In this document: positions 47,070-55,224 of the stretch, piece by piece | How the letters are laid out: each line of letters begins with the position of its first letter | How positions within the stretch are numbered: the stretch's first letter is position 1 | DNA from: Phytoactinopolyspora halotolerans | Lineage (GTDB): Bacteria > Actinomycetota > Actinomycetes > Jiangellales > Jiangellaceae | DNA length: 64,000 nt | Direction: 5' to 3' | NCBI RefSeq assembly: GCF_010550675.1 | Contig: NZ_JAAGOA010000002.1 | Coordinates: forward strand, 248,001 to 312,000 | Program-made: the position numbers and the translations under genes | Notes under the pieces: model-generated | Databases searched by the model: none | Seen by the model: only the letters and a program-made list of their open reading frames with translations | What the model was told of the DNA's origin: nothing

Positions 47070-48440
47070 CTACAGCGCCTTCACCGCGGTGACCAGTCCG
47101 GTCAGCGAGTCTTTCGCGTCACCGAAGAACAGCGTCGTCCGCGGGTTGTAGAGCAGCTCGTTCTCGATGCCGGCGAAACCGGGCCGCATCGAGCGTTTGA
47201 GGAAGACCACCGCCTGAGCTTGGTCGACGTCGAGGATCGGCATCCCGTAGATCGGCGAGCCCGGCGAATCCCGGGCGGCCGGGTTGACGACGTCGTTCGC
47301 GCCGACCACCAGCGCCACGTCCGTGTTGCGCAGCTGGCCGTTGGCGGTGTCCATCTCGAGCAGCTGCTCGTAAGGGACGTTCGCCTCGGCCAGCAGGACG
47401 TTCATGTGCCCGGGCATCCGCCCGGCGACGGGGTGGATCGCGTAGGAGACCTCGATGCCGCGACCCTCGAGCAGTTCGGCGAGTTCGTGGATGGTGTGCT
47501 GTGCCTGCGCCACGGCGAGGCCGTAGCCGGGGACGATCATGACCTTCTGGGCGTAGTTGAGCATGATGGCGACGTCGTCCGCGCCCGCCGAGCGGACCGG
47601 ACGTTCGGAGACCGCGCCACCGCCGGCGGTGGAACCACCGCGGAACGCGCCGAACAGAATGGAGCTGATGGAGCGTCCCATCGCCTGCGCCATCAACCGG
47701 GTCAAGATCGTACCGCTGGCGCCGACCAGCGTTCCGCCGATCAACAGCAGCGCGTTGCCGAGTACGTAACCGCCGGCCGCGACGGCTATACCGGTGGCGG
47801 CGTTGAGCAGCGAGATCACGATCGGCACGTCGGCTCCGCCGACCGGCAGCACCAGCAGGACGCCGACGATGAGCGCCACCAGGCCCAGCACCGCCGCCAG
47901 CCAGGCGCTCTCGCCGTCACCGGCGTAGAGGAACACGGCCAGCACCAGCGCGGCGACCAGCGAGGCGCCGAACAACGTCGGTCCCGCCGGAGGCGTGACC
48001 GGACGGGTGGTGATCAGCTCCTGCAGCTTCAGGAACGTCACGACCGAGCCGCTGAAGGCGATCGACCCCACCGGCACGGTCAGCACCGCCGCCGCCAATG
48101 GGAAGACGGTCTCGGCCCCGGACAGCTCCAGCGACGCCACGAGCGCGGCCGCACCGCCGCCGACACCGTTGAACAGCGCCACCAGTTGCGGCATCGCCGT
48201 CATCGCCACGCGTCGTGCCGCCGGTATGCCGATGGCGCAGCCGACCACGATCGCGCCGATGATCCACGGCAGGTTGTCCAGCTCGTAGGCGATGAATGTG
48301 ACGATCATCGCGCCCAGCGCCGCCGCGGCTCCGAGCAGGTTGCCCGTACGAGCTGTCTTCGGCGAGGAGAGACCCTTGAGTGCGAGGACGAAGCAGACGG
48401 CGGCGGCGAGGTAGGCGAGCTGTGCCCAGGTGTCGATCAC
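47070..48440 (-). CDS. pntB: NAD(P) transhydrogenase beta subunit
   Basis: 456 residues. About eight or nine membrane helices (domain II) are followed by the NADP-binding domain III (about 275-456) with VPGYGLAVAQAQHTIHELA, GRMPGHMNVLLAEANV and VVGANDVVNPAA. It couples proton entry to NADPH formation from NADH. GTG 48440 overlaps the pntAB stop by 4 bp. Confidence 0.95.
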   Translation of the reverse strand: MIDTWAQLAYLAAAVCFVLALKGLSSPKTARTGNLLGAAAALGAMIVTFIAYELDNLPWIIGAIVVGCAIGIPAARRVAMTAMPQLVALFNGVGGGAAALVASLELSGAETVFPLAAAVLTVPVGSIAFSGSVVTFLKLQELITTRPVTPPAGPTLFGASLVAALVLAVFLYAGDGESAWLAAVLGLVALIVGVLLVLPVGGADVPIVISLLNAATGIAVAAGGYVLGNALLLIGGTLVGASGTILTRLMAQAMGRSISSILFGAFRGGSTAGGGAVSERPVRSAGADDVAIMLNYAQKVMIVPGYGLAVAQAQHTIHELAELLEGRGIEVSYAIHPVAGRMPGHMNVLLAEANVPYEQLLEMDTANGQLRNTDVALVVGANDVVNPAARDSPGSPIYGMPILDVDQAQAVVFLKRSMRPGFAGIENELLYNPRTTLFFGDAKDSLTGLVTAVKAL

Positions 48441-48736
48441 GCGCCGCCTCCCGTCGACTTCTTGCCGCGGAACATCTCCAGCATCCGGTCGGTGACGACG
48501 AACCCGCCCACCAGGTTCAGCGTAGCCAGCACGGTGGCGACCACACCGATCGCCAGTTCCAGGCCGCCGTCCGCGTGGCCGGTGACGAGCACCGCACCCA
48601 CCAGGATGATCCCGTGGATCGCGTTCGCGCCCGACATCAGCGGTGTGTGCAGTGTCGACGAAACCTTGGAGACCACCTCGTATCCGGTGAACGCCGCCAA
48701 CACGAAGATGGTCAGGAGCGCGACCTCCGAGTCCAT
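48437..48736 (-). CDS. pntAB: NAD(P) transhydrogenase alpha subunit, membrane part
   Basis: 99 residues, three to four helices. HTPLMSGANAIHGIILVGA and NLVGGFVVTDRMLEMF are the family markers. ATG 48736 uses the last base of the pntAA stop (TGATG). It forms the channel with PntB. Confidence 0.95.
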   Translation of the reverse strand: MDSEVALLTIFVLAAFTGYEVVSKVSSTLHTPLMSGANAIHGIILVGAVLVTGHADGGLELAIGVVATVLATLNLVGGFVVTDRMLEMFRGKKSTGGGA

Positions 48737-49860
48737 CAGCCCTCCTCTTCGAGCGATGCACGTGTGGGCTCGTGCCGCACCGTGCCGTCGTGGGTGACGC
48801 AGACGCCGTCGATGATCTCGTCGTCCAGATCGACGGTGATCTCTCCTTCGCTGGTCATCAGCAGGATGAGATTGACCAGGTTGGCCGCGTAGAGCCGGCT
48901 GGCGTGCACGGGCAGCTGACTGGGGACGTTCGCTCCACCCCACAGCAGCGTCTGGCCCACGGTCAGCTCTTCGCCCGGCCGGCTACCCTCGACGTTCCCG
49001 CCGGACTCGGCGGCCAGATCGACCACCACGCTGCCCGGCTTCATGGCTTCGACGGCGTCCCGCTCGACCAGCAGGGGAGCCGACCGTCCCGGGACCGCGG
49101 CGGTCGTGATGACGACGTCGGCGGCCGTGACGTAGGGAGCGAGCAGATCTCGCTGCTGCTGGGCCCGCTCCTCGGTCATCTCCCGCGCGTAGCCGCCGGC
49201 GCCTTCGAGGCTGGGCAGGTCGAGCTCGACGAACCGCGCGCCGAGACTGCGGATCTCCTCCGCCGAGGCGGCCCGGACGTCGTAGGCGTCCACGCGTGCG
49301 CCGAGCCGCCGGGCCGTCGCGATCGCCTGCAGACCGGCGACGCCGGCGCCCAGCACCAACGCCTGAGCCGGCGGGACGGTGCCGGCGGCGGTCATCGAGA
49401 GCGGGAAGAACCGGGGCAGCCGTTCGGCGGCGACGAGCACCGCGCGGTAGCCGGCCACCAGCGCCTGGGACGTCAGCGCGTCCATCGATTGTGCGCGAGA
49501 GATCCGCGGGACGAGTTCCATCGCGCATGCGGTCACCCCGGCGTCTCGTGCCTGCCGGACGAACTCCAGCTCGCTCGCGGTAGGGATGAACGAGAGCGTG
49601 ATCGCGCCGGGTTTCAGGTTCGCCACCCGGACCGGGTCGAGGGGCTGGACCGACAAGATGACGTCGGATCCCTCCAGCACGTCGTCCCGGACGTCCGCTC
49701 CGGCGTCGCGATAGGCGTCGTCGGTGTGGAAGGCCGTGAGTCCCGCACCGGTTTCCACGACGACGTCGAGGCCGGCCCCGGTCAACCGGCCGACCAGTTC
49801 GGGCACCAGGGCGACCCGCTTCTCCTGCGGGCGAGTCTCCCGAACGACGGCGACCCTCAT
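48736..49860 (-). CDS. pntAA: NAD(P) transhydrogenase alpha subunit, NAD-binding part
   Basis: 374 residues. The N-terminus MRVAVVRETRPQEKRVALVPE and RISRAQSMDALTSQA are typical; the Rossmann motif is VLGAGVAGLQAIATARRLGA (near residue 170). The soluble NAD(H)-binding domain I. First gene of the pntAA-pntAB-pntB operon, the three-gene form typical of actinobacteria. Confidence 0.95.
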   Translation of the reverse strand: MRVAVVRETRPQEKRVALVPELVGRLTGAGLDVVVETGAGLTAFHTDDAYRDAGADVRDDVLEGSDVILSVQPLDPVRVANLKPGAITLSFIPTASELEFVRQARDAGVTACAMELVPRISRAQSMDALTSQALVAGYRAVLVAAERLPRFFPLSMTAAGTVPPAQALVLGAGVAGLQAIATARRLGARVDAYDVRAASAEEIRSLGARFVELDLPSLEGAGGYAREMTEERAQQQRDLLAPYVTAADVVITTAAVPGRSAPLLVERDAVEAMKPGSVVVDLAAESGGNVEGSRPGEELTVGQTLLWGGANVPSQLPVHASRLYAANLVNLILLMTSEGEITVDLDDEIIDGVCVTHDGTVRHEPTRASLEEEG

Positions 49861-50388: not shown

Positions 50389-50643
50389 TCAGCGGTCCGT
50401 CTCGACGTCCATGGTGCCGTCGGGCTTGAGGGTGTAATAGGTCTGGTGGCCGCTGGGATACTTCGTGGCGACGGTGAGGTCGCGCTCGAGTCTCTCCGCG
50501 TGGTCCATGAGGATACGCAGGACGGCGATGTTCGTGGCGTCCTCGGCTGCCGGCTCGGAAGAGTCTCCGATGAAGAGTGTGAGTGCTCCTCCGTCATCGA
50601 CGACGATTCTTGCTTGGGCCGCGGTGTCCGTGTCTACTGCCAT
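50389..50643 (-). CDS. Hypothetical acidic protein
   Basis: 84 residues from ATG 50643; a TTG at 50691 would add 16. It contains ARIVVDDGGALTLFIGDSSE and TKYPSGHQTYYTLKPDGT. No family recognised and no signal peptide. It follows the radical SAM gene by about 140 nt on the same strand, but the gap suggests its own promoter. Confidence 0.55.
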   Translation of the reverse strand: MAVDTDTAAQARIVVDDGGALTLFIGDSSEPAAEDATNIAVLRILMDHAERLERDLTVATKYPSGHQTYYTLKPDGTMDVETDR

Positions 50644-50781: not shown

Positions 50782-51792
50782 TCAGGCACACGTGAATCGC
50801 TGCGCTGCGAGTTCGCTCTCTCTTCGGTAGTCGGCGAATCGACGTCGTACTTCATCGATCGCATCGGCGAGCGGGAACAGGTCACGGGTGACGAGCTGAT
50901 CGGCATGGTCCGCCGCAACCGGATGCCAGTACACGCCATCCGCCGTGACCGTCACCTCGGGGACCAGCGACTCCACCGTGAGCGTCACCCCGTCGTCGGC
51001 GAAACCGCGCTGGGCGACGGGGCGGATGACCCGGTCCGCGCGTTCGATCCCGAGGCCGTCGAGCAGTCCGTGGAACGCCGCGGTCTCGTCGGTGCCCGCC
51101 GCGCCGGGTGAGACCGTCGCCGCCACCCGCACCCGGAAGCCTTCGTCCCGGGCCGTCCGGATCCCGTCCAATGCGCGCTGCCAGCTGCCGGCCCCGCGGT
51201 GCAGGTCATGCAGGTCCGGCGTCGCGGAGTCGAGACTGATCTGCAGCGCCAGCCCGTCTCGCGGCATGGCCCGCAGCATCCGCAACCGGCGGCCCCGAAA
51301 CAGCATGCCGTTGGTGAGCACCGTGGTCGGCAGCCGCGCCACGCAGTCGCGGACGATCTCGTCCAGGTCGAGCAACAGGAAGGGCTCGCCGCCGGTCAGG
51401 TAGACCTCGGTCACGCCGTGCTCCGCGCCTTCGGCGACCAGCCTGCGGATGCGTTCCGGACCCACCGCCCGACGTTCCGCCTGCGGGGACGAGCGGGCGC
51501 AGCAGTAGTCGCATGCCAGGTTGCAGTCGAAGTTGGTGTAGATCCACAGCCGGGTGCCCGGCTGTCGCTCGGGCGGGATCTCGGCCAGGACGGCGTCGTC
51601 GTCGGGAATCGGTCCGCGCATGATCACCGCGACGCCGTCGTCGATCCGGAGCAGCCGATGGCCCGCACGTTCGCACCAGCGCCCCACCAGCTCCGGGTCG
51701 CTGTCGCCGACCTGGACCGGGACCCGTTCCCCGGCAGCGGCGGCGCCGACACGCGCGACCAGGTCCACGAGGGTTCGCGCGTCGCCTACCAT
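50782..51792 (-). CDS. Radical SAM protein with N-terminal TusA-like domain
   Basis: 336 residues. About residues 1-60 resemble a TusA/SirA fold (GERVPVQVGDSDPELVGRWCERAGHRLL, with a Cys at 40). The radical SAM barrel follows: the [4Fe-4S] motif CNLACDYC (C90, C94, C97), GGEPFLL (134-140) and a C-terminal extension without SPASM cysteine clusters. TusA proteins relay persulfide sulfur, so a sulfur-related reaction is plausible. It overlaps the PhnD-like gene by 7 bp and is the last of the coupled genes. Confidence 0.85.
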   Translation of the reverse strand: MVGDARTLVDLVARVGAAAAGERVPVQVGDSDPELVGRWCERAGHRLLRIDDGVAVIMRGPIPDDDAVLAEIPPERQPGTRLWIYTNFDCNLACDYCCARSSPQAERRAVGPERIRRLVAEGAEHGVTEVYLTGGEPFLLLDLDEIVRDCVARLPTTVLTNGMLFRGRRLRMLRAMPRDGLALQISLDSATPDLHDLHRGAGSWQRALDGIRTARDEGFRVRVAATVSPGAAGTDETAAFHGLLDGLGIERADRVIRPVAQRGFADDGVTLTVESLVPEVTVTADGVYWHPVAADHADQLVTRDLFPLADAIDEVRRRFADYRRESELAAQRFTCA

Positions 51793-52601
51793 CGGGCCGG
51801 GATCCCTTGCTCTTCGACGGCGGTGAACAGCGAGGCATACCCGTCCAGCTCAGGGAGGACCCACTCACGGCGCAGCCCTTCCAGCTCCATGACCGTGCGC
51901 TGCTTCGGATCGTCCCACGACATCGCCAGCAGGTGATCGACGAACAGCTTGCCGACGTCGTCCGGCAGCGAGTCCAGCGCGGTGAAGTTGCAGTGGCAGT
52001 ACTCCGGCGAGCGCCAGAACTCGGTCAGCGCGTCCGGCATCAACTCGTCCGAGCCGATCGCCTCCCAGGTGTTGATGCCGAGGGCGACGGCGTCAGCCTC
52101 CTCGTCCAGCAACGCCCGGACGGCGTCCAGTTCGCTCCGCCCGGTGTCGCCATGTTTGCCGAGATCGGTGTCGATGCGGATCAGTTCGACGTCGTCCGTT
52201 CCCAGGCCGGCGTCGCGCATGTACTTCACCGGCAGAATCGCCGCCTGAGCGGAATCGCGCGAGCCGAGCGCGACCCTGCGCCCCCGCAGGTCGGCCAGGT
52301 CGCCTAGACTCGCCCCGGCGCGGGAGACGAAGACGGTCTGGAAGGTCCGGTCGATGTCGCGCATGGCGAGCGCGCGGCAGCGCCCATCGGTCTGCAGGAC
52401 CGTCCGCACCCAGGCCAGGTTCGTGTTCCAGGCGATGTCGATCGTGCCGTCGATCAGGGCATCCACCTGCCGGCCGTAGTTGGAGAACAGCACGAAGTCC
52501 ATCTCCACCGGGCCGTCGGCGAAGTAGTCCCGGATGCCTTCCCAGATCGGGACGACGTTGGTCGTGTACGCCACCGCACCGACAAGTACGGCTTGTCTCA
52601 T
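51786..52601 (-). CDS. PhnD-like binding protein without signal peptide
   Basis: 271 residues with the phosphonate/phosphite type II periplasmic-binding fold: AYTTNVVPIWEGIRDYF, LIDGTIDIAWNTNLAWVRT, LRGRRVALGSRDSAQAAILPVKYM and TALDSLPDD. Unlike true binding proteins it starts directly in the mature fold (MRQAVLVGAVAY), and no lipobox or signal peptide exists. I infer a cytosolic ligand-binding role. ATG 52601 is 11 nt after the preceding stop. Confidence 0.8.
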   Translation of the reverse strand: MRQAVLVGAVAYTTNVVPIWEGIRDYFADGPVEMDFVLFSNYGRQVDALIDGTIDIAWNTNLAWVRTVLQTDGRCRALAMRDIDRTFQTVFVSRAGASLGDLADLRGRRVALGSRDSAQAAILPVKYMRDAGLGTDDVELIRIDTDLGKHGDTGRSELDAVRALLDEEADAVALGINTWEAIGSDELMPDALTEFWRSPEYCHCNFTALDSLPDDVGKLFVDHLLAMSWDDPKQRTVMELEGLRREWVLPELDGYASLFTAVEEQGIPARW

Positions 52602-52612
52602 CGCCCTGCCCC

Positions 52613-53788
52613 CTATCCGAACACCGGCTGACCGGTGATCGCCTTGCCGTAGAAGTCGTACAGCACGTCGGCCGTCGGCGCCATCACGTGTCCAGCTCGC
52701 GCGTCCCGGAAGAAACGCTCCAGCTGCAGGCGGTTCGAGAACGCCGCTCCGCCGCATACCCGCATCGCCGCGTCGGTGACCCGCAGCGCCGTGTCGTTGG
52801 CGAACGCCTTGACCCCGAGCACGTGGAGCATGGTCTCGTCGCCGGGTGCGGCCAGGCTGCGCGCCGTGAGGTCGATGTACGAGCGAGCCGCGGCCACGTC
52901 GAGTGACATCTTGGCGAGCTGGGCGCGGATCGTCGGCAATTGGGCCAGCGACTGGCCGGTGTGTTCCAGCGTGGATCCGGACGCGTGCGTCACCGCCGCG
53001 CCGACCGCGGCCTGCGACAATCCCGCCGACACCGCGGCGTTGCCGAGGTTGAACCATGGCATGACAGCATCCAGCATCAGTTGGAATCCGCCGCCGGGTG
53101 CGCCGATCCGGTCGTCGTCGGTGACGTCGAGCTGGAACGTCATCGGTGCCGAGGCGTTCCCTCGAAGGCCCAGCCCGCGCCATGCGCCGGCGACGGTGAC
53201 GCCGTCGCGCCCGCCGGGTACCGCGTAGAGGTCCACGGCCGGGGACGCGGCGCCGGCGTCGCCCGTGGCCAGCGTCGAGACGACGTAGACGTCGGCATGG
53301 CCTGCTGAGGTGACGAAGCTCTTCTTCGCATCCAGCGTGACAGCGTTCGTGCCGCCTTTCCCGGGATCGCCCGACGATGCCGGCCGGGCCTGCGAGGTGG
53401 GCGCCCAGAAGTGCGACCGCGAGCCTGGTTCGGAGAAGGCCAGGGTGCCGAGCGTCGTACCGTCGGCCAGCTCTTCCAGCAGTTTCGGATGGCCCGGCGG
53501 AGCGGCCGCGGCGGTGGTCATGGCGGCGCTGAGGTGCATGAGGTAGACCATGGCGGTGGATCCGCACACTGACGCGACCTCGGCCAGCGCCCGGGCGGCT
53601 TCCACCGGCCCGCCGCCCATGCCGCCGATGTCGGCGGGCAGAGTGAGACCGAGCAGGCCGCTTTCGCGGAGCGCGGTCACGGCCTCGTGTGGAAACCGGC
53701 TGTCGGCGTCGACGTCCGGGGCGGCGGCGCGAGCCGCGTCGAGAACCGGCGCGAGCGCGTCGGTGAGGTGTTCGTGGGTGAGATTCAT
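52613..53788 (-). CDS. Acyl-CoA dehydrogenase-family flavoprotein
   Basis: 391 residues with the three-part acyl-CoA dehydrogenase fold: N-terminal helices (LRESGLLGLTLPADIGGMGG), beta domain (LAFSEPGSRSHFWAP, KKSFVTSAGHADVYVV) and C-terminal helical domain (MRVCGGAAFSNRLQLERFFRDARAGHVMAPT). The usual catalytic Glu/Asp position near the C-terminus cannot be confirmed. Relatives include FMN-dependent desulfurisation monooxygenases (DszC/SfnB), so the reaction may be oxygen- and not CoA-based. ATG 53788 overlaps the preceding stop. Confidence 0.8.
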   Translation of the reverse strand: MNLTHEHLTDALAPVLDAARAAAPDVDADSRFPHEAVTALRESGLLGLTLPADIGGMGGGPVEAARALAEVASVCGSTAMVYLMHLSAAMTTAAAAPPGHPKLLEELADGTTLGTLAFSEPGSRSHFWAPTSQARPASSGDPGKGGTNAVTLDAKKSFVTSAGHADVYVVSTLATGDAGAASPAVDLYAVPGGRDGVTVAGAWRGLGLRGNASAPMTFQLDVTDDDRIGAPGGGFQLMLDAVMPWFNLGNAAVSAGLSQAAVGAAVTHASGSTLEHTGQSLAQLPTIRAQLAKMSLDVAAARSYIDLTARSLAAPGDETMLHVLGVKAFANDTALRVTDAAMRVCGGAAFSNRLQLERFFRDARAGHVMAPTADVLYDFYGKAITGQPVFG

Positions 53789-54210
53789 CCCGTTCCCTTC
53801 CAGCTGGTGTCCGATGGTGACTCCGGTTGTGCGGACGGTTCGGCGGCGTCGCGGGGTGTCAGCCCCACGACGAGGAGCCCGGATCCGAGGCCGACCCAGA
53901 ACGATGCGGCGCTGATGTTGCCGCCCAGCCAGTCGTCGCCGGCGGCGGTGGAGATCACCTGCAGGACGGCGGCGATCAGGTAGGCGGTGCCGGCGACGAC
54001 GGCGAGGACCGGGCGGGCGAGCAGCCCTGCTAGGCAGGCGAGAGCGCCGACGCCGAGCGCGATCGCGACGGACACGCCGTCCAGCCAGATGAACCTGAAC
54101 TCCTGCAGACCCTCGGCGACGAAGACCACGCTGACGATGGAGGCCGCCCCCATGACGACGCACGCCCGGTCGAACGGATGCCTCGGGGAGGTGGCGCCGG
54201 GGCCGCTCAT
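53785..54210 (-). CDS. Four-helix membrane protein, unknown
   Basis: 141 residues: a short N-terminal tail, four transmembrane helices (about 20-125) and a Ser/Pro/acidic end. FIWLDGVSVAIALGVGALACLAGLL is helix 2. No family recognised. It overlaps the DoxX-like and the acyl-CoA dehydrogenase-like genes by 4 bp each, so it is certainly part of the operon. Confidence 0.8.
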   Translation of the reverse strand: MSGPGATSPRHPFDRACVVMGAASIVSVVFVAEGLQEFRFIWLDGVSVAIALGVGALACLAGLLARPVLAVVAGTAYLIAAVLQVISTAAGDDWLGGNISAASFWVGLGSGLLVVGLTPRDAAEPSAQPESPSDTSWKGTG

Positions 54211-54749
54211 GACAGCCGCTCCAGCAGCCGGGCGAGCGCGGTGTCGCTCCGTCGCCAGGCGGGACGGAGCACACCGTCGAGGCCGCCGTACCGGCCGGCG
54301 GCCGTCGCGAAGAGCATCAGGTGGACCAGGAACATCAGCAGGTAGGCCCAATACCACTCGTGTGGCGCGTTCAGGGTGGAGAGCGAGATCACGATGCTCT
54401 GGCCCATGCCGACCACGGCCCACGCTCGCGTGGCCAGGCCGACGAGCAGGAACGCGCCGAGCGACGCCTCGACGATGAGGACCAGCCAGCCGAAGAGAGC
54501 GAAGTTCGGCACGACCACGTTCTCCACGAACCACGCGTACGGGGCCAGCACCTCGTGTTCGACCGCCTGAAGCGTCCATCGGTACAGGGTTCGCGGCGGG
54601 TCGCCCTCGCCGAAGTCCGGCGGCTGTTTCCAGGAGACGTTGTCGATCCACAGCAGTGCGACGCCGACCCGGCACGCACCGAGGAGCCAGCCGTTGAGCC
54701 GGGAGGCCGTGAGCGCGGTTCCGACGTCCGTCGGTCTCGATACCGTCAT
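54207..54749 (-). CDS. DoxX/DoxD-like membrane protein
   Basis: 180 residues with four helices. The N-terminal half has GWLLGACRVGVALLWIDNVSWKQPP and the second half has FGWLVLIVEASLGAFLLVGLATR and HLMLFATAAGRYGGLDGVL, typical of DoxX/TQO (thiosulfate:quinone oxidoreductase DoxD) relatives. These are quinone- or thiol-associated membrane proteins. ATG 54749 overlaps the upstream small frame by 4 bp. Confidence 0.8.
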   Translation of the reverse strand: MTVSRPTDVGTALTASRLNGWLLGACRVGVALLWIDNVSWKQPPDFGEGDPPRTLYRWTLQAVEHEVLAPYAWFVENVVVPNFALFGWLVLIVEASLGAFLLVGLATRAWAVVGMGQSIVISLSTLNAPHEWYWAYLLMFLVHLMLFATAAGRYGGLDGVLRPAWRRSDTALARLLERLS

Positions 54750-54862
54750 GGGCACGTCCGCTTCGTCGCGTCGTCGGTGCCGGCCGCGTGCACGGCCACC
54801 GTCTGGGCTGGTCCGCCGGTGAGCGAGCCATTGGTCCGATGGAAGCACGACGCGTGCCGCAT
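54746..54862 (-). CDS. Possible 38-residue peptide ahead of the DoxX-like gene
   Basis: Short frame MRHASCFHRTNGSLTGG...TKRTCP ending in TGA that overlaps the DoxX-like ATG (ATGA). Third-position GC is high in this frame and lower in the alternatives, supporting coding. A weak AAGGATC lies before the ATG with short spacing. Two Cys, a Cys-Pro end and His/Gly/Thr-rich composition. It could be a leader peptide for attenuation, a substrate for the radical SAM protein, or a chance frame. Confidence 0.4.
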   Translation of the reverse strand: MRHASCFHRTNGSLTGGPAQTVAVHAAGTDDATKRTCP

Positions 54863-55026
54863 GATCCTTACAAACTGCGAAAGGACTGGCGGGTTCGCCG
54901 CCGTGCGGGCATCCTGGTACTTGGCATTTCGTTCCAGTACGTCCGGGTTCGTCGTCGTCGCCGCTGTCGTCGTCGAGATGAGGCCGGGACCGGTCGTGTG
55001 GCCGGTCGAAGCTCCAGGGGGAGTCG

Positions 55027-55224
55027 ATGAGCGCACAGGTCGCGATCGTGTGTGACCGATGTGGCGATATCGGGGCAGTCGGGGCGACAGCACCCGAGCT
55101 CCGTGACGGCCTGAACGGCTGGTCCTGGCGGAACGGCCTGGACACGTGTCCGTTGTGCCGGCTGGTGACATCGGACGTGTCGTATGCCGGCCAGGCCCGC
55201 GCCGACGGCGGGTTCCGGTCTTAG
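55027..55224 (+). CDS. Small zinc-ribbon-like protein
   Basis: 65 residues with two CxxC pairs (CDRC near residue 9 and CPLC near 41), likely a structural zinc site. It is divergent from the DoxX operon and shares its promoter region. GGGGAG precedes ATG 55027. No family recognised. Confidence 0.6.
   Translation: MSAQVAIVCDRCGDIGAVGATAPELRDGLNGWSWRNGLDTCPLCRLVTSDVSYAGQARADGGFRS

What the first reader, a model, noticed from the sequence alone, without database searches (positions are those of the whole stretch)
50782..54862. Unfamiliar coupled operon: DoxX-like, membrane protein, flavoenzyme, PhnD-like and TusA-like radical SAM proteins
Five genes overlap by 4-7 bp or are separated by 11 nt, so they act together. 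The combination of a thiosulfate-quinone-oxidoreductase-like membrane protein, an acyl-CoA-dehydrogenase-like flavoprotein, a soluble PhnD-like binder and a radical SAM enzyme with a TusA-like arm suggests sulfur, selenium or modified-peptide chemistry. I do not recognise a described pathway with this set.
Basis: partly seen in the sequence, partly recalled or inferred. Interest (0 to 1): 0.75.

Follow-up and report, generated by a model that had tools for sequence, protein, structure and literature searches.

The report
Radical-SAM partner of thio-sugar glycosylation genes
This five-gene operon is a soil actinomycete's version of four unexplained tuberculosis-bacillus genes, and in many bacteria it travels with genes like those that make an unusual sulfur-bearing sugar for the cell surface, which gives it a first testable role.

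Summary
As families the set is not new: NCBIfam models named after M. tuberculosis Rv1678-Rv1681 cover four of the five proteins, all over cut-off. I found no published function in the library searched.

The new result is the company it keeps. All 41 genomes with this radical SAM (rSAM) protein or a relative that I tested also carry a CofC-like protein. In 14 of 14 part-A genomes whose CofC region I opened, it stands beside a GT2 glycosyltransferase, usually with a GalE-like epimerase (13), a membrane glycosyltransferase (10) and MTA phosphorylase (9). That is the layout of the mycobacterial methylthioxylose (MTX) cassette (MtxS/MtxT). In Glycomyces both cassettes form one run.

I read the operon as a partner module of an MTX-type 5-modified pentofuranose pathway, with the rSAM acting on the adenosine or pentose precursor. 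The reaction is inferred. The "acyl-CoA dehydrogenase" lacks the usual catalytic Glu, the "PhnD" has no export signal, and "MoeX" is not MoaA. The sugar cassette often occurs without this operon, so the operon is an add-on.

The parts
54207..54749 (-). DoxD/DoxX-like membrane protein (probably the N-terminal half of Rv1678-type proteins)
   Evidence: PF04173 38.1 bits over cut-off 22.7; homologue in 50 of 80 related loci; in M. simiae one 307-aa ORF, L063:5115-6038, holds the DoxD match and is long enough for both halves
53785..54210 (-). small membrane protein, Rv1678 C-terminal family
   Evidence: NF049986 101.7 bits over cut-off 50; four hydrophobic windows
52613..53788 (-). acyl-CoA-dehydrogenase-fold flavoprotein, Rv1679/FadE16 family
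   Evidence: NF049984 626.4 bits over cut-off 600
52679..52681 (-). codon A370 (VMAPT), at the place of the acyl-CoA dehydrogenase IYEGT glutamate
   Evidence: two of the three PDB alignments shown have IYEGT there, the third has IYTGT; A370-P371-T372 conserved in at least 93% of 60 aligned sequences
51786..52601 (-). PhnD-fold binding-protein-like protein without signal peptide, Rv1680 family
   Evidence: NF049985 495.3 bits over cut-off 400; AF2 model pLDDT 92.5 matches PhnD 7s6g, TM 0.76; no hydrophobic window
51990..51995 (-). His203-Cys204 of the PhnD-like protein, conserved
   Evidence: C204 in 68 of 69 aligned sequences, H203 in at least 93%
50782..51792 (-). radical SAM protein, Rv1681 ('MoeX') family
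   Evidence: NF049973 513.7 bits over cut-off 380; AF2 model pLDDT 92.4
51613..51792 (-). TusA-like N-terminal domain of the radical SAM protein (about residues 1-60), without the TusA catalytic Cys
   Evidence: PF01206 in 14 of 40 homologues; helix-strand-helix-strand-strand in the model; no CPxP Cys in the sequence (TusA motif recalled)
51499..51525 (-). cluster-binding CxxxCxxC plus adjacent Cys98 (residues 90-98)
   Evidence: C90, C94, C97 in 79 of 79 and C98 in 76 of 79 aligned sequences
50788..50790 (-). penultimate C-terminal Cys335 (FxCA tail)
   Evidence: Cys at this column in 79 of 79 aligned sequences; penultimate in 74 of 79 by the tails printed

Best explanation
The operon is the Rv1678-Rv1681 module. 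It works as a partner ('part A') of a separate cassette ('part B': MTA phosphorylase, CofC-like nucleotidyltransferase, GT2 polyprenyl-phosphate sugar synthase, GalE-like epimerase, GT-C-like transferase) that builds a 5-modified pentofuranose and attaches it to surface glycans. In M. tuberculosis that sugar is methylthioxylose on lipoarabinomannan. Shown by sequence: family membership, co-occurrence and physical linkage. Inferred: the radical SAM enzyme acts on the 5'-adenosyl or thio-pentose precursor, upstream of the phosphorylase and CofC steps. The flavoprotein and the PhnD-fold protein handle a small (sulfur) oxyanion or thioether co-substrate. The DoxD/membrane pair links the flavin to the quinone pool.
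For: Four of five proteins exceed NCBIfam cut-offs for Rv1678-81. In 396 genomes of the phylum (own genome included) all 15 with an rSAM match of 180 bits or more carry the CofC-like protein at E<=1e-30, against 60 of 381 others (Fisher p 4e-12). Also 17 of 17 genomes reached through loci and 7 of 7 Mycobacteriaceae rSAM genomes; in the window's genus G001-G003 have both and G004 lacks both. Linkage: CofC-like in the fetched stretch in 27 of 80 rSAM loci, CofC-like plus GT2 in 24 of 80; one uninterrupted run in Glycomyces L139; mixed or adjacent in L157, L093, L073. M. persicum and M. simiae part B reads MTAP, Epi, GT2, CofC, GT-C; MtxS=Rv0539, MtxT=Rv0541c (PMC8780516 passage). Own genome: part B at G000:C23. 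The rSAM core resembles, among others, sugar or nucleotide rSAMs: BlsE, viperin, MoaA, AbmM; AbmM is described as swapping sulfur for oxygen with its FeS cluster as donor (PMC12691670 passage).
Against: Part B is common without part A: 60 of 381 genomes have the CofC-like protein without the rSAM match, and 16 of those 60, opened as L165-L180, all look like part B, so part A is not required for it. Only 3 of the 15 phylum genomes pass the curated rSAM cut-off of 380; the other 12 (200-279 bits) are relatives, six of them on a long branch. MTX is reported to start from 5'-methylthioadenosine (PMC11127046 passage), which leaves no obvious need for a radical enzyme. In 53 of 80 loci no CofC-like gene lies in the fetched stretch; 12 of 80 lack both SBP- and ACAD-like genes there, and only 2 of those 12 show CofC. 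In the own genome the two parts lie on different contigs. The rSAM core also resembles peptide maturases (SuiB, SkfB rank first). No reaction was tested; M. tuberculosis itself was not among the named loci.
Confidence: 0.58

Rival explanations
1. Sub-case or rival, ArsS/futalosine logic: the rSAM adds the 5'-deoxyadenosyl radical to an acceptor prepared by the flavoprotein and the PhnD-fold protein, so it makes a new 5'-substituted adenosine. The phosphorylase then removes adenine, and CofC-like and GT2 load the new sugar. The product is a third kind of 5-deoxy-5-X-pentofuranose, not MTX.
For: In a divergent rSAM relative (L147, 269.8 bits to NF049973) a metallophosphoesterase-like domain (my reading) is fused to the rSAM (tail YHCA), next to a CofC-like gene, a TIGR04283 glycosyltransferase (185.6 bits over cut-off 182) and an MTAP-like gene. 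The rSAM and CofC matches are about 10 nt apart in G141 and G172. Adenosylation of arsenic in arsenosugar biosynthesis is catalysed by a radical SAM enzyme (PMC12159101 passage). HpnH, an adenosyl transferase, is among P0005's NCBIfam hits at 62.5 bits.
Against: P0005 is not ArsS or HpnH by cut-off (HpnH 62.5 vs 225; ArsS not among the 25 of 76 families shown). MTA already serves as precursor in the reported MTX pathway. MqnA/MqnD are not among the SBP-like model's 50 best folds shown.
Confidence: 0.22
2. Sub-case or rival, sulfur insertion: the rSAM with its TusA-like arm and invariant C-terminal Cys receives persulfide sulfur and installs it in the sugar, in the manner of AbmM; a methyltransferase or other partner finishes the group.
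For: TusA-like arm, C335 in 79 of 79, a DsrE-like cluster with members in 4 rSAM loci (only the L107 member was scanned), similarity to AbmM 8wm2, a methyltransferase near the rSAM in five loci without SBP/ACAD (L097, L100, L101, L105, L106).
Against: The arm lacks the TusA sulfur-carrying Cys (motif recalled). No second Cys cluster in the window protein (its Cys are 40, 90, 94, 97, 98, 150, 335). MTX sulfur can come intact from MTA. The AbmM match covers about residues 59-250 only.
Confidence: 0.18
3. Sub-case or rival, radical C3 epimerase: the rSAM turns the ribo precursor into the xylo sugar.
For: MTX is a xylo sugar while MTA is ribo; xylofuranose is the C3 epimer of ribofuranose (PMC11127046 passage). 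EpeE, a radical SAM epimerase, is a structural relative. Cys98 and Cys335 are candidate H donors.
Against: A GalE-like epimerase is in 13 of 14 part B neighbourhoods of part A genomes and in 16 of 16 opened without part A.
Confidence: 0.1
4. Unrelated partners: part A does its own sulfur or redox chemistry and co-occurs with part B only through shared ecology or regulation.
For: In M. tuberculosis the nearby rv1676 and dsbF are described as redox genes, and rv1676 is activated in vitro by the redox-responsive regulator Cmr (PMC5499769 passages). Part B alone is common.
Against: Linkage recurs across phyla, with one uninterrupted run in Glycomyces, and both parts are missing together in G004.
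Confidence: 0.12

Closest known systems
M. tuberculosis Rv1678-Rv1681 (membrane protein, FadE16, SBP-like, MoeX)
   Same: family models over cut-off for four proteins; same gene order DoxD, ACAD, SBP, rSAM in M. simiae L063 and M. persicum L069
   Different: the Rv1678-type protein appears as two genes here; no DsbF/Rv1676-like ORF noticed directly upstream in the window (read, not searched for)
Methylthioxylose capping cassette (MtxS Rv0539, MtxT Rv0541c and neighbours)
   Same: a like cassette in the same genome and beside part A in many others
   Different: no radical SAM, flavoprotein or SBP-like match of this kind in the part B neighbourhoods opened without part A (L165-L180); occurs without part A in many genomes
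Arsenosugar biosynthesis (ArsS, TIGR04282, TIGR04283)
   Same: logic rSAM + CofC-like + glycosyltransferase, with a phosphorylase near; a divergent rSAM relative sits with a TIGR04283 gene over cut-off
   Different: rSAM is not ArsS by cut-off; no arsenic genes were noticed near part A (not searched for systematically)
AbmM, albomycin thiosugar radical SAM
   Same: radical SAM core similarity (E 1.3e-9; fold rank 24, TM 0.44-0.48)
   Different: the match covers about residues 59-250 only; no TusA-like arm known to me in AbmM (recalled)
Futalosine menaquinone pathway (MqnA/MqnD with MqnE/MqnC), recalled
   Same: binding-protein fold used as an enzyme beside radical SAM and nucleosidase
   Different: the SBP-like model's 50 best folds shown are mostly PhnD/PtxB/ArrX/AioX/HtxB/SsuA; MqnA or MqnD not among them

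Membership tests
Rv1681 family radical SAM (NF049973) | score over curated cut-off 380 | tested here: met
   513.7 bits
Rv1681 family radical SAM (NF049973) | CxxxCxxC cluster motif | tested here: met
   C90, C94, C97 in 79 of 79
Rv1679 FadE16 family (NF049984) | score over cut-off 600 | tested here: met
   626.4 bits
canonical acyl-CoA dehydrogenase | active-site Glu of the IYEGT motif | tested here: not met
   A370 (VMAPT) in its place (one of the three PDB relatives shown also lacks the Glu); conserved in at least 93% of 60 sequences
Rv1680 SBP-like family (NF049985) | score over cut-off 400 | tested here: met
   495.3 bits
ABC-transporter binding protein (PhnD) | export signal | tested here: not met
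   no hydrophobic window in the protein
ABC-transporter binding protein (PhnD) | permease and ATPase genes in the operon | tested here: not met
   none of the five operon proteins matches them; the rest of the window was not searched by family models
MoaA (molybdenum cofactor), as the name MoeX suggests | MoaA score over cut-off | tested here: not met
   56-66 bits against cut-offs 231-325 in three MoaA models
thiosulfate:quinone oxidoreductase DoxD | NF041179 equivalog cut-off 300 | tested here: not met
   17.4 bits; the general DoxD domain PF04173 passes
TusA sulfurtransferase | TusA domain | tested here: inconclusive
   PF01206 hits 14 of 40 homologues, not the window protein
TusA sulfurtransferase | catalytic Cys in the first CPxP motif | tested here: not met
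   the only Cys in residues 1-60 is C40, and there is no CPxP (motif recalled)
ArsS arsenosugar radical SAM (TIGR04167) | score over cut-off 300 | tested here: not met
   not among the 25 of 76 families shown for P0005; two relatives score 51.5 and 53.2
MTX capping pathway | part B cassette in the same genome | tested here: met
   G000:C23 has MTAP-like, GT2, CofC-like, GT-C-like and GalE-like genes; MTAP 256.2 vs 274.85 and TIGR04282 111.9 vs 134, both just under cut-off
MTX capping pathway | methylthioxylose on a surface glycan | not testable with these tools
   needs glycan analysis

The most novel reading that the evidence does not exclude
A radical-SAM enzyme with a TusA-like arm and an invariant C-terminal Cys is the key step of a third, cross-phylum class of 5-deoxy-5-X-pentofuranose biosynthesis (beside arsenosugars and MTA-derived MTX). 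It creates the C5'-X bond on adenosine before a phosphorylase, a CofC-like enzyme and GT2/GT-C glycosyltransferases mount the sugar on cell-surface glycans. Mycobacterial 'MoeX' would then be a sugar enzyme, not a molybdenum-cofactor enzyme.
Probability: 0.27. Interest if true: 0.85.

Novelty: new variant of a known kind. Interest (0 to 1): 0.62.

Why it matters
Four mycobacterial genes for which I found no published function would gain a testable place in the pathway that decorates lipoarabinomannan with methylthioxylose, a diagnostic epitope (PMC6258851, search listing). One of them, Rv1681, carries the misleading name MoeX and occurs in papers on tuberculosis markers (PMC4202705, search listing). 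It would also suggest that 5-modified-pentose surface glycosylation reaches far beyond mycobacteria, into Bradyrhizobium, Acidobacteria, Myxococcota and one archaeal MAG.

Tried and rejected
MoaA/MoeX role: rejected by cut-offs. Modified-peptide (RiPP) maturase: SuiB and SkfB are the top folds for the rSAM core, but the window protein has no second Cys cluster; precursor peptides were not sought, so this is unlikely rather than excluded. Import of phosphonate: not supported (no export signal, no transporter among the operon's genes). The 83-aa ORF downstream (50389-50640) had one Pfam hit at E 0.18 and none in NCBIfam, and is left out. Selenium: nothing beyond the SBP's 79.6 bits to a putative selenate-binding family, cut-off 250.

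Literature: searched the held open-access library for Rv1678-81, moeX/fadE16, TIGR04282/04283, methylthioxylose, mtxS/T with Rv0539-41c, AbmM, ArsS and combinations. Lists were capped (30 of 82 papers, 40 of 57, 30 of 97) and I read passages of some papers only. I saw no paper linking Rv1678-81 to methylthioxylose; subscription journals are mostly not held. The key paper of Angala 2017 is not held, so MTX details come from citing papers read as passages, and the rest of the Rv0535-Rv0541c gene order is recalled.

Weak points: the 180-bit rSAM threshold was chosen after seeing the gap (181.8 to 107.1 bits), and 12 of the 15 genomes above it are below the curated cut-off; the Fisher test treats genomes as independent. 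G644's rSAM match is partial (residues 159-326). Neighbour calls rest on tblastn and score thresholds that I set. The tree has long branches; absence of SBP and ACAD needs about five changes on it, so it is not one clade.
Full report
Observation. The five ORFs are present on the minus strand and coupled as described: DoxD-like 54749-54207, membrane protein 54210-53785, acyl-CoA-dehydrogenase-fold protein 53788-52613, PhnD-like 52601-51786, radical SAM 51792-50782. Overlaps are 4, 4 and 7 bp and the gap is 11 nt.

Families. NCBIfam places four of five proteins over curated cut-offs in families named after M. tuberculosis genes: Rv1678 C-terminus (101.7 vs 50), Rv1679/FadE16 (626.4 vs 600), Rv1680 SBP-like (495.3 vs 400) and Rv1681 radical SAM (513.7 vs 380). 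The fifth matches the general DoxD domain (38.1 vs 22.7). In M. simiae (L063) one 307-aa ORF holds the DoxD match and is long enough for the membrane part too, which my tblastn did not detect there. So the gene set is known as families. One search found no paper with two of Rv1678-Rv1681. Of the papers listed I read passages of five: proximity labelling (PMC13043812), GWAS (PMC6440112), transcriptomics (PMC12889156), proteomics (PMC11250799), and PMC5499769, which reports that the redox-responsive regulator Cmr activates rv1676 in vitro. None of these passages gives a function for Rv1678-81.

What the proteins can and cannot be. The flavoprotein aligns over most of its length to acyl-CoA dehydrogenases in the PDB (best 118.2 bits) but has VMAPT where two of the three alignments shown have IYEGT; the third has IYTGT. 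A370 is conserved in at least 93% of 60 aligned sequences, so it is not a canonical dehydrogenase. The PhnD-like protein has no hydrophobic stretch. Its model (pLDDT 92.5) matches PhnD (TM 0.76), PtxB, ArrX and AioX; GKHGDTG and His203-Cys204 are conserved. The radical SAM protein has one CxxxCxxC, an adjacent Cys98 (76 of 79) and Cys335 at the C-terminus (column 79 of 79; penultimate in 74 of 79; 78 of the 80 loci plus the window). Its N-terminal 60 residues are TusA-like: PF01206 hits 14 of 40 homologues, though not the window protein, and the model shows helix-strand-helix-strand-strand. They lack the TusA sulfur-carrying Cys (motif recalled). MoaA models score far below cut-off, so the name MoeX misleads. 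The closest solved cores are SuiB, SkfB, BlsE, viperin-like enzymes, EpeE, MoaA and, at rank 24, AbmM.

Neighbourhoods. ACAD-like and SBP-like genes both lie with the rSAM in 62 of 80, DoxD-like in 50, the small membrane protein in 19, a CofC-like gene in 27, CofC-like plus GT2 in 24, a GT-C-like gene in 22, a GalE-like gene in 11, a phosphorylase in 8 (59 of the 80 loci are 12 kb or longer, 22 of these with CofC). One CofC-like gene in a 5-Mb genome would fall within 8 kb of a given gene in about 0.3% of cases (my estimate, not a run control). Examples: Glycomyces L139 has MTAP, GT2, CofC, response regulator, kinase, GT-C, epimerase, DoxD, membrane protein, ACAD, SBP and rSAM in one run. L157 has MTAP, ACAD, SBP, rSAM, epimerase, GT2, CofC, GT-C and DoxD. 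Myxococcales L093 mixes the same genes, and in Bradyrhizobium L073 and acidobacterial L075 the two sets lie side by side.

Co-occurrence. In 396 genomes of the phylum (own genome included), 15 have an rSAM match of 180 bits or more, 3 of them over the curated cut-off. All 15 have the CofC-like protein at E<=1e-30, against 60 of 381 others (Fisher p 4.2e-12, genomes treated as independent). Seventeen of 17 rSAM genomes reached through loci also have it (16 at 185 bits or more, one at 94). One search found the rSAM at E<=1e-60 in 7 of 201 Mycobacteriaceae genomes (5 over cut-off, one match partial), and all 7 have the CofC-like protein. In the window's genus G001-G003 have both and G004 lacks both; five genomes of another genus of the family (G006, G010, G014, G016, G018) have the CofC-like protein and no full-length rSAM match. 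In total 41 of 41 rSAM genomes tested. The converse does not hold: part B is common without part A. Of the 60 such genomes I opened 16 (L165-L180): all 16 carry GT2, CofC-like, epimerase and GT-C-like genes, and 8 have MTAP alongside.

What part B is. Around the CofC-like gene of 14 part A genomes (L132-L145), GT2 is adjacent in 14, the GalE-like gene present in 13, a GT-C-like gene in 10 and MTAP in 9. In M. persicum (L132) and M. simiae (L133) the order is MTAP, GalE-like, a gap of about 3.7 kb, GT2, CofC-like, GT-C, which is the order I recall for Rv0535-Rv0541c. [quoted passage not shown] PMC11127046 (passage) says that MTX comes from 5'-methylthioadenosine, with a decaprenyl-phosphate donor and a GT-C enzyme. 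The M. persicum phosphorylase exceeds the MTAP cut-off (296.3 vs 274.85); that of the window genome is just below (256.2). MTX is also found as a sulfoxide (PMC8531672, passages). The window genome's own part B lies at G000:C23.

Interpretation. Part A is an add-on of an MTX-type pathway: in the genomes tested it implies part B, not the reverse. Its components with sulfur connections (DoxD, TusA-like arm, a DsrE-like cluster in four rSAM loci, similarity to AbmM) fit a 5-thio-sugar context. Twelve of the 80 loci lack SBP and ACAD near the rSAM; two of these (L099, L105) have CofC and GT2 beside it, the others have no part B gene in the fetched stretch. Of the divergent rSAM stretches fetched, L146/L147, L152 and L154-L156 have CofC-like genes near the rSAM without SBP or ACAD, while L148, L149, L150, L151, L153, L158 and L159 show no CofC nearby, although their genomes have it. 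I take this to mean that the rSAM is the link to the sugar pathway and the other two are helpers; near five rSAM relatives a methyltransferase stands instead. In L147 the rSAM is fused to a metallophosphoesterase-like domain and followed by CofC-like and TIGR04283 genes with an MTAP-like gene nearby, a layout like arsenosugar genes. I therefore place the rSAM reaction on the adenosine or pentose precursor. Which reaction (adenosyl transfer, sulfur insertion, epimerisation) is open; the first three rivals are sub-cases as well as rivals, so their odds overlap with the main one.

Novelty. The families are named, the function is not; I saw no paper linking them to MTX (searches, with capped lists). 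Hence new variant of a known kind, with a bolder reading kept in the section on the most novel reading.

Noticed in passing
L147:5894-7924: Rv1681-type radical SAM relative fused to an N-terminal metallophosphoesterase-like domain (my reading of the sequence), tail YHCA, followed by CofC-like and TIGR04283 genes, two FAD-oxidoreductase-like genes (my reading) and an MTAP-like gene.
   Followed up: partly
L073:1536-2612, L086:13518-14603 and other Bradyrhizobium loci: A second radical SAM protein (its L080 homologue is nearest to tungsten-cofactor maturases, far below cut-off) sits between GT-C and GT2 genes where many actinobacteria have a GalE-like epimerase; it could be a radical epimerase.
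   Followed up: no
L097, L100, L101, L105, L106: A methyltransferase lies next to or near an Rv1681-type radical SAM in loci without ACAD- and SBP-like genes.
   Followed up: partly
window 54750-55145: The DoxD reading frame stays open upstream and its translation (with a CQVPGCPHGG...FAVCKDH stretch) is 52% identical over 132 aa in L039 but had no such match in the six other relatives searched; could be an upstream extension or a small gene.
   Followed up: partly
L111:10602-12523: A response regulator and histidine kinase pair is embedded in the sugar cassette of the window genome and of many relatives, a likely dedicated regulator.
   Followed up: no
L092: A Thermoplasmata archaeon MAG carries ACAD, SBP, rSAM, CofC-like, GT2 and epimerase genes within 9 kb; transfer between domains or mis-binning.
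   Followed up: no
window 47070-49860: ORFs that resemble NAD(P) transhydrogenase subunits (my reading, no search made).
   Followed up: no
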